The notes below the pieces were generated by a model. That model was not told the origin of the DNA, ran no database searches, and worked only from the letters and a program-made list of their open reading frames with translations. Positions 3,714 through 8,144 of a stretch of DNA of 64,000 nt are shown in pieces (within the stretch, counting starts at the first letter, position 1; each line of letters starts with the position of its first letter). A program made the translations under genes and the position numbers. The stretch comes from Chlorophyllum brunneum. Lineage: Eukaryota > Basidiomycota > Agaricomycetes > Agaricales > Agaricaceae. The stretch is taken from NCBI GenBank assembly GCA_963576785.1, contig OY756143.1, positions 1,736,001 to 1,800,000 of the forward strand, given 5' to 3'.

Positions 3714-4396
3714 CTATACAACACGTCTTTCGCAACGTGTCTCTATATGAACTTTTTCACAACTCAGGTCGCAATAGGGCATTGCGCAGCGTTTGCACTT
3801 GTAACTGCCCCAAAAACTGCAGACAGAACACAACATGCGAGGCGGGTATGTGGGTGGGGGAGCTGCTGCAGTCAAATATGTCGGAATATTCGCGGGAAGG
3901 GCAGCGATACCCTGATGAGATGATGATGACAGGTGGTTGGTGACAAGAGTTATTCACTCACAGACTCATCAATAAGAGTATTGAAGTTCTTCTTGTATAG
4001 TAAAGCCGTACGAACACTCATTGCTGACTTCTTCTTGCGTGCGGCGGCAGATGTGCCAGGTATGATGAGGTTTGTCCGTTTGTCCGAGATGGTCTGCCGA
4101 GCGCGACCGTGCTTGACTCCACCTTCACCGCCTTCATCGTCGGATACAGATGCTACATTTGCCTCAGAATAATTAGACCTCTGCCAAGGTTGGTCAAGGT
4201 ACGTTGGAATCTGATATACATGTGAAACACACCTCGAGTTCGTCCAGATGCCGCTTGGTCCTCTTTGCGATGACTTCTGGCGTCAGGGTCTGGTTCGCAA
4301 GATTGACCTGCCGTGCTACTGTGGGGGGTCAATACCGTCAATGAATGAATGGAATTTGGAGGCCATACGCTGCTGTCTGCTCCTCTTTGGAGGCAT
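3714..4396 (-). CDS. VPS71: SWR1 chromatin-remodelling subunit Vps71/Swc6 (ZNHIT1 family)
   Basis: Component of the complex that exchanges H2A for H2A.Z in nucleosomes. The spliced product is about 165 residues: a basic start MPPKRSRQQ, a helix with LTPEVIAKRTKRHLDELE, an acidic stretch SDDEGGEGG, the conserved KKNFNTLIDES, PTYLTAAAPPPTYPPR, and a C-terminal HIT zinc finger with Cys pairs in MLCSVCSFWG, KCKRCAMPYC and the terminal ETRCERRVV. Ending on RCERRVV is typical of the family. Three introns are needed; the first (55 bases, GTATGG..CACAG) removes an in-frame stop and links the N-terminal peptide to the helix. A longer frame beginning upstream of this ATG gives unrelated sequence, so this ATG was preferred. 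The start lies 282 bases from the divergent start of the fusion gene. Confidence 0.9.
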
Positions 4397-4678
4397 CCTA
4401 CATGACTTGTCGATGGTATGATCAGGAGACGGGCGCTTGCATATTGAGCACGCAATTGATCGCTGCTTTCCGGATTTACATATTGTTCATAAAAGCGCTC
4501 TCCCATCTCCACTCCGTTCCTCCCTCCACCTCCATTATCAACTGCACCCTCAGGCTCAATATTGGGGTGCATTGTGAGGTCGCTAGATTCGAATTCATTA
4601 ATCCCACTAACACGTTCGCTTTCAGCACCTGACTACCCCACACTTTGACATTGTACTCTACCGCAACTCAAATCCACA

Positions 4679-7600
4679 ATGGCTGCAAAATCCCCGCCAG
4701 ACAAATTAGCATCCGTGAAATATGACCTCCCAACCCCCGAGCCGGAATCACCCCTTCGTCCTCGCAAACCCTACCGGTTTTCCACCCTCTGTGCCACCGT
4801 CGAAAATCCTGGGATGAAGGACCAATATGGTAGTTCTTCAGTCCCCATATACCAAACTTCAACCTTCAAAGGTGTATCAGGGGAGTATGATTACAGCAGA
4901 AGCGGAAATCCTACAAGAACCCATCTTGGTGAGCGAGCGTCTATCGGTGATGTGATTCGGCCTGTTAATGAGCTTGTGCCTTGCTCAGAGCATCACATCG
5001 CCAAAATCTCGTCTGCTGTCCATGCATTTGCAGTATCCTCTGGGATGGCTGCCCTTGACGTCATTCTGCGGTTGCTCAAGCCTGGAGACGAGGTTATTGC
5101 GGGTGACGACTTGTACGGTGGTACTAATCGCCTCTTGGCCTACATCAAAACCCATGTGGGCGTTACGGTCCACCACGTCGATACCACAGATTCAGCATCG
5201 CTAAACCCCTATATTCACCCAGAGAGGACCGCGATGGTACTCCTCGAGAGTCCGACCAACCCCTTGCTTAAGATTGCCGACCTCGCGACGATCAGCAGGG
5301 ATGTCAAGGAACGCGCACCAAACGCCATTATTGTTGTGGATAATACCATGATGAGCCCCTACCTACAAAGACCGCTGGAGCATGGTGCAGATATTGTATA
5401 TGATAGTGCCACGAAGTATTTGAGCGGGCATCACGATCTTATGGCTGGGGTTGTTACCTGCAACCGGGATGACGTTGCCAAAGTGAGTAAACGTGAGTGA
5501 ACGACAAGGTTCCTCTCACATATCATTTCCCAGCAAATCGCCTTCACAATAAACGCAGTCGGCAATGCTCTCACACCCATAGACTGCTTCCTCCTTCTCC
5601 GAGGTATCAAAACGCTCGCACTCCGCATGGACCGCCAACAAACCACCTCAGGCCTCGTCGCCAACTACCTCCACTCTCTCGGATTCCGTGTCAACTATCC
5701 TGGCCTTCCGGGTCATCCTGGGAAAGATATTCACGCCCGTATTGCCGACGGCAACGGCGCAGTCCTAAGCTTCGAAACTGGCAGCAAGACACTGAGTGAA
5801 AGCATCGTGGCGGGTACACGCCTCTGGGGCATCAGCGTCAGCTTTGGCTGCGTCAACAGCTTGATTAGTATGCCTTGTGTGATGTCGTGAGTATGACCCT
5901 CCACTCCTCTTGGCCCATTTCTCCGAGGACAATGGTTATTGATAGAGGGAAAATGAAACTTAGGCATGCTTCCATCGACGCCGCTACTCGAGCTGCTCGT
6001 GGGCTTCCGGAGGACCTCATACGGCTGTGTGTCGGTATTGAAGATCCTCATGATCTTTTAGATGATTTGGAACGTGCATTACTTGCTGCTGGTGCGATCG
6101 AACTTGATCAAATCCAGAATAACTATGTCCGCATTGCCGAACGTGATGGTACGGATGCTATCACAAGAGCTGTTCAGAAACTTGCGGATGGGGAGGAGTC
6201 TGATATGAAGGAATGGCTCGTTAGTGCTCCTGGAAAGGTCATTCTGTTTGGTGAACATGCTGTTGTTCATGGTGTGGTGAGTGTGTCATTGATGATCGAA
6301 TGTTCTTACCGGTTGCCCTGGTCCGAGCTCTCGCTAAGCCAACTCATGCACGCTAACCTGTTTTATTCCAGACTGCCATTGCGGCATCAGTCGATCTCCG
6401 GTGTTATGGTCTTGCGACCCCTCGCCAGGATCATCGTCTATCGGTTCACCTCCACGACATTGACAATTTTTTTTATGAATGGGACATCAAGAGTCTTCCT
6501 TGGGACTCAGTTACAGCAGCGGCTGCGGGGGAGGAACATCCGGATCTCGATCAGCGGCTCGTTGATGCACTGCTCCAAGGTCCACTGAGCCAGATCTCAG
6601 ACGCACAGAAAAATGCTCGAGTTGCAAGTTTGGCATTCCTCTATCTCTACATGATTCTTAGCAAGAGCGAGGAGCGGTAAGCCCATCGTCCACTCATATC
6701 TCCTAGACACCGCGGCGCTAAGATATCGTTTTCTTTCTCTCCCTTTCTCCCTCACTACGTTCTTCCGCTTTCCCGCGCTCTCGACAAAATAGACCAGCAT
6801 TCAACTTCAGCGCACGGGCAACACTCCCAGTAGGGGCAGGCCTAGGCTCCTCAGCATCTTTCTCTGTGTGCGCAGCAACTGCAATCCTCCTTGTATACCG
6901 ACGCATCAGTATTCCCCAGCTTCCGGCACCAACAGACCCCGCCACAGGACACGTCCACGTCTCTCACCAAGGCCGACGAGCCCTTCCATCAGCGATTGCG
7001 GAAGGGGTGAATCGATGGGCGTTCGTATCGGAAAAAATCCTGCACGGAAATCCAAGCGGTGTGGATAATAGTGTTGCTGTGTATGGTGGTGCGCTTGCGT
7101 ATACTCGGCCTGGGTTTGCAAGAAAGTGCGGGATGGAGGTTATTCAGGGGTGAGTGCCCGACTTTCCTTCTACGAACGCGGGAGCTGACCGTCGAACCTT
7201 TCTTTTCTCCCTTTCGTAGATTCAAATCACTCAAGTTCTTGCTTACGAACTCCAAGGTGCCTCGAGATACCAAGAAGTTAGTCGCGGGTGTTGGTGAAAA
7301 AAAGGCTAGCGTAGGTTGTTTCCCGACCGCAGTTCCTACCCACCAGTTGATAGAAGTAATATCATTTGGGGATATTACATTGTTTTCAGGAACCTGAACT
7401 CGTAAATGGTATTCTCGACGCCATCCAGAGTATCACTGATGAGGCAAGGAGGGCACTAGCGGATCCAGAATTACCTCGTGAATCGCTGCTCCGGGCTCTG
7501 TCTGTACGTGTTTTTCGTCATTCTTACAGCTGGCTGCTCACTCCTCGGTGTAATGGTGTGTAAACTCTTCAGGCACTTATCAACGAAAATCACGGCCACC

Positions 7601-8144
7601 TCGTGACGCTGGGTGTGTCACATCCGTCGTTGGAGGCCATCCGCGCCAAGACGACTGCGCCTTACGGCTTAAGCACTAAACTTACTGGTGCCGGAGGCGG
7701 TGGTTGCGCTGTTACTCTCCTCCCAGATGGTACGCTTTGAAATCGCACTTGCCTGTCCCTTCATCTCGGCATTAATCTCATTATCAACTTCATACTTACT
7801 TGACGGTTGCTGCAGAATTCAAGCCGGAAGACCTCCAAAGACTCGCGGACGACTTGATCCGCGAGAATTTTGAACCTTACATCACCTCTGTTGGAGGCAG
7901 TGGGATGGGTATCCTGTCACCATACCCCGACCATCGCAACCGTGGCGCTCCTTCGGCGGTAACACACGTACATGTACAGACAGAGGGCCAGGTCACCCCG
8001 CCCGAGACGCCCGCCCCTGAGCGTCAGATGCAGTTGGGTGCCAAGGAGGATACCATTGAAGAACTCAGGGCATCGTTCGAGACCAGCTCTGTTGAAAGAC
8101 TGTCAGAGTGGACAAGCGGACTTGGGAGATGGTTGTATGTATAA
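4679..8144 (+). CDS. Natural fusion: cystathionine beta-lyase + mevalonate kinase
   Basis: One reading frame of about 920 residues in ten exons joins two enzymes of unrelated pathways. Residues 1-410 form a PLP-dependent trans-sulfuration enzyme, best matched to cystathionine beta-lyase (cystathionine to homocysteine): YDYSRSGNPTRTHLE, SSGMAALDVILRLL, the PLP lysine in SATKYLSGHHDLMAG, VSFGCVNSLISMPC and RLCVGIEDPHDL. Residues 411-446 are a polar linker. From Met447 a full GHMP-type mevalonate kinase follows: KVILFGEHAVVHG, PVGAGLGSSASFSVC, the catalytic Asp in NPSGVDNSVAVYGG and KLTGAGGGGCAV. The exon at 5964-6276 spans the C-terminal end of the lyase, the linker and the first kinase motif with no stop and no intron, so the junction is not a splicing guess. 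Met447 could in principle act as an internal start, but the lyase then has no stop of its own. Confidence 0.9.

What the first reader, a model, noticed from the sequence alone, without database searches (positions are those of the whole stretch)
4679..8144. Cystathionine beta-lyase fused in frame to mevalonate kinase
The sequence shows one 920-residue frame: a complete trans-sulfuration enzyme (residues 1-410), a 36-residue linker, and a complete mevalonate kinase (447-920). A single exon (5964-6276) reads through from the lyase C-terminus into KVILFGEHAVVHG with no stop, so this does not depend on a predicted splice. All key residues of both enzymes appear intact. I know of no established bifunctional enzyme of this kind. 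Hypothesis: it ties homocysteine/methionine (and so S-adenosylmethionine, used by the sterol C-24 methyltransferase) to the isoprenoid pathway, or keeps the two activities in fixed ratio.
Basis: partly seen in the sequence, partly recalled or inferred. Interest (0 to 1): 0.88.

Follow-up and report, generated by a model that had tools for sequence, protein, structure and literature searches.

The report
Known mushroom lyase–kinase fusion enzyme

Summary
Ten exons at 4679-8144 (+) give one 920-residue protein: a cystathionine beta-lyase (1-410), a 36-residue linker and a mevalonate kinase (447-920). The junction lies inside exon 5964-6276, with no stop. The lyase half passes the curated cut-off of TIGR01329 and the kinase half that of TIGR00549.

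The belief that no such enzyme is known is wrong. Liu et al. 2012 (PMC3342255) described it as metC-MVK in 12 basidiomycetes (Laccaria bicolor the exception) and in no other species they examined. Two later papers report it in other mushrooms (PMC3720577, PMC4129116). In my search 120 of the 120 listed hits carry both halves. A kinase tree puts all 42 fused rows on one side of a supported branch, consistent with one early fusion. Most catalytic-type residues are near invariant in 129 long homologues while the linker varies, which suggests two working enzymes on a loose tether. It is the only mevalonate kinase I found in this genome.

Why the two are joined is untested. The proposed methionine/SAM-to-sterol link is possible but unsupported here. 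Verdict: real, already known, low interest.

The parts
4679..4928 (+). exon 1, N-terminal extension and start of the lyase (residue 1 on)
4989..5482 (+). exon 2, lyase with PLP-lysine Lys226 (assignment recalled)
5534..5886 (+). exon 3, lyase; ends at ...SLISMPCVMS
5964..6276 (+). exon 4, the junction exon: lyase C-terminus, linker (residues 411-446), start of kinase (VSAPGKVILFGEHAVVHGV)
6372..6676 (+). exon 5, mevalonate kinase
6793..7149 (+). exon 6, kinase: GLGSSAS ATP loop, insertion with SHQGRR, NPSGVDN with Asp663 (catalytic-base assignment recalled)
7220..7310 (+). exon 7, kinase
7390..7503 (+). exon 8, kinase
7573..7729 (+). exon 9, kinase with GAGGGG motif
7816..8144 (+). exon 10, end of kinase core, variable stretch, conserved tail ending GRWLYV, stop
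   Evidence: tail of homologue P0001 modelled

Best explanation
This is the basidiomycete metC-MVK gene: one mRNA and one protein of about 100 kDa, with an N-terminal PLP-dependent cystathionine beta-lyase (cystathionine to homocysteine) and a C-terminal GHMP-fold mevalonate kinase (mevalonate to 5-phosphomevalonate), joined by a variable tether. Shown: the continuous frame, both families, conserved catalytic-type residues, conservation of the fusion in relatives. Inferred: that it is one mRNA and one protein, that both halves are active, and that the fusion arose once, early in Basidiomycota, and persisted because the gene became the only source of mevalonate kinase and of the dedicated beta-lyase. 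On this view the domains work independently, and the fusion mainly fixes 1:1 expression and shared regulation; the lyase tetramer (general knowledge of the family) may carry the kinase domains as passengers.
For: Open frame. Both halves pass curated equivalog cut-offs: TIGR01329 at 524.1 vs 487.5 bits, TIGR00549 at 210.8 vs 163.05. 120 of 120 listed hits fused. Identity to the window over the 129 of 169 fused homologues that have 780 residues or more: lyase 84%, kinase core 71%, linker 38%. Catalytic-type residues near invariant, e.g. Lys226 128/129, Glu652 129/129, Asp663 128/129. All 42 fused kinase rows lie on one side of a branch with SH-aLRT 96. Own genome: no other mevalonate kinase found; the other three GHMP hits are homoserine kinase, diphosphomevalonate decarboxylase and a short unassigned GHMP exon. 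Published as metC-MVK. In the model of homologue P0001 both halves match solved lyase-family and mevalonate kinase folds.
Against: No assay, RNA or protein data for this organism. The passages I read of the three papers that report the fusion give sequence or transcript findings, no enzyme test. In the tree the fused label needs 7 changes, not 1, because 8 unfused rows fall inside the fused side; 4 of them begin with lyase C-terminal sequence and look like cut gene models, one begins with linker-like sequence, and three show no lyase sequence. Five named basidiomycete kinase hits carry no lyase half (P0148, P0149, P0184, P0190, P0196); all cover only 56-65% of the kinase and look like fragments, but this was not proven. 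Liu et al. name Laccaria bicolor as lacking the fusion.
Confidence: 0.9

Rival explanations
1. Two genes that happen to read through: separate lyase and kinase mRNAs, or an internal start at Met447 making kinase alone.
For: Met447 lies at the linker/kinase boundary in this sequence.
Against: No stop in the junction exon. Met at that column in 1 of 129 homologues, and any Met in the region 412-452 in 29 of 129. 120 of 120 listed hits fused. 8 of 11 fused proteins on contigs under 4 kb leave 177-433 nt non-coding, less than this gene's 703 nt of introns (inference). The Pleurocybella unigene found in mycelium is fused (PMC3720577).
Confidence: 0.04
2. The fusion couples two pathways: homocysteine/methionine, and so SAM for sterol C-24 methylation, is tied to mevalonate flux through contact or allostery between the halves, or through shared sterol control.
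For: Fusion kept in many Agaricomycetes and in Malassezia. A mevalonate kinase gene is a direct SREBP target in Ganoderma lingzhi (PMC9810662, passages); if that gene is the fusion (inference), sterol signals would also drive the lyase.
Against: The two reactions share no metabolite (general knowledge). The linker varies in sequence and length, and the model gives no firm relative placement of the halves (pTM 0.56), so a specific interface is not indicated.
Confidence: 0.1
3. The lyase half has lost activity and serves as an oligomerisation scaffold for the kinase.
For: Lyases of this fold are tetramers (general knowledge), so they could cluster kinase domains.
Against: The PLP lysine and substrate-site residues checked are conserved, e.g. 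Lys226 128/129 and Arg386 129/129, and the lyase half is the more conserved of the two; it passes the equivalog cut-off.
Confidence: 0.04

Closest known systems
metC-MVK fusion of basidiomycetes (Liu et al. 2012, PMC3342255)
   Same: Order of domains, length class (average about 886 aa there, 920 here), only mevalonate kinase found in the genome
   Different: Species and linker sequence; no other difference found
Lignosus rhinocerotis GME67_g (PMC4129116) and the Pleurocybella porrigens unigene (PMC3720577)
   Same: Same fusion; 918 aa in Lignosus
   Different: Other species
Eukaryotic cystathionine beta-lyase (TIGR01329; Arabidopsis structure 1ibj)
   Same: Family score and active-site residues; best solved relative by sequence; 50% identity in the Foldseek match of the homologue's model
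   Different: Stand-alone enzyme there
Eukaryotic mevalonate kinase (TIGR00549; mammalian structures 1kvk, 2r3v)
   Same: Family score, fold and motifs; the homologue's C-terminal tail lies within the aligned range of three animal entries
   Different: Stand-alone there; here a long variable stretch precedes the tail

Membership tests
cystathionine beta-lyase, eukaryotic (TIGR01329) | score above the curated equivalog cut-off | tested here: met
   524.1 vs 487.5 bits
cystathionine beta-lyase, eukaryotic (TIGR01329) | PLP-binding lysine and substrate/PLP-site residues (assignments recalled) | tested here: met
   Present in the window. In 129 homologues: Lys226 128, Arg386 129, Tyr126 128, Asp201 127, Ser357 126; Tyr72 and Arg74 118 each, the other 11 being gaps
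cystathionine beta-lyase, eukaryotic (TIGR01329) | beta-lyase activity on cystathionine | not testable with these tools
   needs an assay
mevalonate kinase (TIGR00549, GHMP kinases) | score above the curated equivalog cut-off | tested here: met
   210.8 vs 163.05 bits
mevalonate kinase (TIGR00549, GHMP kinases) | GHMP motifs and catalytic Lys, Glu, Asp (assignments recalled) | tested here: met
   Lys457 128/129, Ser592 129/129, Glu652 129/129, Asp663 128/129, Ala799 128/129; Lys703 only 98/129
mevalonate kinase (TIGR00549, GHMP kinases) | phosphorylates mevalonate | not testable with these tools
   needs an assay
basidiomycete metC-MVK fusion | both enzymes in one frame, lyase first | tested here: met
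basidiomycete metC-MVK fusion | only mevalonate kinase of the genome | tested here: met
   the search scores only the best candidates, and L003 is identified only as a short GHMP exon far below the cut-offs
basidiomycete metC-MVK fusion | 16-residue insertion in the kinase, in 7 of 12 species of Liu et al. | tested here: inconclusive
   A segment with SHQGRR at residue 629 occurs in 85 of 129 fused homologues and 1 of 36 unfused ones scanned, and faces gaps in the two mammalian sequences aligned; the paper's figure was not available to confirm it is the same insertion

The most novel reading that the evidence does not exclude
The fusion gives basidiomycetes a functional coupling of trans-sulfuration and isoprenoid synthesis: sterol signals acting on this one gene also set homocysteine/methionine, and hence SAM, supply, or the ligand state of one half tunes the other, and this is why it has been kept in so many lineages.
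Probability: 0.1. Interest if true: 0.55.

Novelty: already known. Interest (0 to 1): 0.2.

Why it matters
It confirms a known curiosity: a sterol-pathway enzyme of mushrooms and their relatives is welded to a methionine-pathway enzyme. Practical consequences: the kinase in these fungi is often labelled only as cystathionine beta-lyase (many names), changes to the gene touch two pathways at once, and I found no test of why the two are joined in the papers whose passages I read.

Tried and rejected
Read-through of two genes, an internal start and an assembly artefact were considered and set aside.

Peroxisomal targeting as a reason for the fusion: no PTS1-type C-terminus in any of 129 long homologues, and no PTS2-type motif in their first 40 residues; nothing supports it.

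The conserved C-terminal tail (W....G.W[LMV][YF]x at the end in 121 of 129 fused, 0 of the 17 unfused kinases I chose to check) first looked like a fusion-specific element. In the predicted model of the Leucoagaricus homologue it is confident (block pLDDT 88-92), and structural alignments to three animal mevalonate kinase entries (2r42, 1kvk, 2r3v) end inside it, though that to 8tfo stops at 852. It is probably the ordinary C-terminus of the kinase fold, not a new domain.

SREBP-type motif near the promoter: the published pattern is too degenerate to use. Exact: 66 matches in the window vs 16.8 expected, none between 3103 and 4752, the nearest inside exon 1 at 4753-4763. With one mismatch: three overlapping minus-strand matches at 4519-4533 upstream of the start, but 637 such matches in the window vs 271.7 expected. 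Led nowhere.

Stand-alone basidiomycete lyases: of 104 lyase-only proteins I printed 21 C-termini; 7 stop at the residue where exon 3 ends here (CVMS or CVMR), so they are probably models cut at an intron, not unfused enzymes.

Papers listed for 'mevalonate kinase' with fusion terms that proved unrelated in their passages: PMC11121823 and PMC4393869. PMC3468542, PMC5114307, PMC12194055 and PMC10274911 were seen only as listings.

The Laccaria bicolor exception, Pucciniomycotina and Wallemiomycetes were not tested; hit lists show only the best 120 rows. A second structure prediction and domain-only folds were not run.

Full report
Observation. The region 4679-8144 (+) was read and spliced at nine GT-AG introns of 51-116 nt, giving a 920-residue protein from ATG to stop. 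The junction between the enzymes lies within exon 5964-6276, which is open throughout.

Identity of the halves. Pfam places Cys_Met_Meta_PP at 46-405 and GHMP kinase N and C domains at 570-607 and 755-820. The lyase half exceeds the NCBIfam equivalog cut-off for cystathionine beta-lyase, TIGR01329, 524.1 vs 487.5 bits. The kinase half exceeds that for mevalonate kinase, TIGR00549, 210.8 vs 163.05 bits. The best solved relatives by sequence are Arabidopsis cystathionine beta-lyase 1ibj and mevalonate kinases 1kvk and 2r3v.

It is already known. A paper search for the two enzymes and 'fusion' listed three papers, and I read passages of all three. The Ganoderma lucidum genome paper (PMC3342255, 2012; abstract, section 10 and a Discussion passage) reports the same fusion, calls it metC-MVK, finds it in 12 basidiomycetes with Laccaria bicolor the exception and in no other species they examined, and states that it is the only mevalonate kinase homologue in the basidiomycetes analysed. 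Pleurocybella porrigens (PMC3720577, passages) and Lignosus rhinocerotis (PMC4129116, passage, 918 aa) report it again. Seven further searches listed no title or abstract opening that describes a functional test of the fusion; the library lacks most subscription journals.

Distribution. Searching with residues 250-920, under a length filter that excludes most stand-alone enzymes, gave 946 hits among 7,998 scored candidates, of which the best 120 are listed; by BLASTP 120 of 120 contain both halves. Across the three searches 353 distinct proteins were listed: 169 with both halves, 104 lyase only, 80 kinase only. Named fused proteins include many Agaricomycetes, Malassezia brasiliensis (P0182) and, as a short model holding only the start of the kinase, Vanrija humicola (P0259). 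The named non-basidiomycete fungi among the listed kinase hits, such as Umbelopsis, Morchella, Candida and Aspergillus, are unfused. Against the pattern, five named basidiomycete kinase hits show no lyase half (P0148, P0149, P0184, P0190, P0196); each covers 56-65% of the kinase and is probably a fragment.

One origin. A quick tree of 81 kinase domains (42 fused, including the window, with the top-120 set thinned to every eighth row; 39 unfused) puts all 42 fused rows on one side of a branch with SH-aLRT 96. Eight unfused rows fall on that side. Four of them (P0125, P0172, P0178, P0189) begin with lyase C-terminal sequence and P0127 with linker-like sequence, so they look like cut models; P0154, P0191 and P0193 show no lyase sequence and may be fragments or true splits. 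The label therefore needs 7 changes on the tree as coded, and the tree is unrooted; a single early fusion is consistent with it but not proven.

How it most likely works. In 129 fused homologues of 780 residues or more (40 shorter ones dropped) the identity to the window is 84% for the lyase, 71% for the kinase core and 38% for the linker. Catalytic-type residues (assignments recalled) are near invariant; the exceptions are Lys703 (98 of 129) and Tyr72 and Arg74 (118 each, the other 11 being gaps). Linker length measured between BLAST ends is mostly 31-39 residues (117 of 162 measured). A predicted model of the Leucoagaricus homologue P0001 (mean pLDDT 78.7) has mostly confident enzyme cores, low confidence in 1-43, 46-78, 345-369, 429-444 (the linker) and 865-897, and pTM 0.56, so the relative placement of the halves is uncertain. 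This fits two independent working enzymes on a tether. Contact between the halves is neither shown nor excluded.

Own genome. Searching the assembly with the kinase half finds only this gene. The other three GHMP hits are homoserine kinase, diphosphomevalonate decarboxylase, and a short GHMP exon at C5:2769570 that no curated cut-off assigns. The lyase half finds this gene far ahead of a gene on C11, whose best family matches are cystathionine gamma-synthase types below their cut-offs on a partial frame, and a pair on C13 that match the O-acetylhomoserine sulfhydrylase family below its cut-off on partial frames.

Transcript evidence is indirect. Of the 11 listed fused proteins whose longest contig is under 4 kb, 8 leave 177-433 nt non-coding, less than the 703 nt of introns in this gene; the other 3 leave 888-1,007 nt. 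This suggests spliced cDNA for the 8. The Ganoderma lingzhi SREBP paper (PMC9810662, abstract and passages) reports its mevalonate kinase gene g3941 as a direct target induced by SREBP overexpression; that g3941 is the fusion is my inference. If so, one sterol-responsive promoter drives both enzymes.

Verdict. Real, correctly described, already published, ordinary for the group.

Noticed in passing
window 3714-3953 (-): HIT zinc finger (PF04438, E 1.4e-8) in an open frame on the minus strand just upstream; if the open frame reaching 4632 belongs to the same gene, it shares a very short divergent promoter with the fusion gene.
   Followed up: partly
L007, L008 (G000:C13 about 641 kb and 656 kb): Two neighbouring copies of an O-acetylhomoserine sulfhydrylase-type gene about 14 kb apart in the same genome.
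   Followed up: partly
G000:C8 about 235, 276, 338 and 428 kb: Four places on one contig match the Cys/Met PLP-enzyme family with similar scores (about 36-37 bits), suggesting a duplicated paralogue family.
   Followed up: no
window 7816-8144 (residues 849-920): The kinase carries a variable stretch with a TPPxTP motif before a conserved tail ending in GRWLYV; the tail pattern is in 121 of 129 long fused homologues.
   Followed up: partly
window, whole: Purine-rich GRVGRVGRVGR matches are about four times as frequent as in shuffled sequence (66 vs 16.8 expected, overlapping matches counted), with clusters near 34.5, 61 and 63 kb.
   Followed up: no
P0196 (Rhizoctonia solani, partial, 818 aa): A listed protein joins part of a mevalonate kinase (residues 77-311) to a PF20153 domain instead of the lyase; could be a mis-joined gene model.
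   Followed up: no
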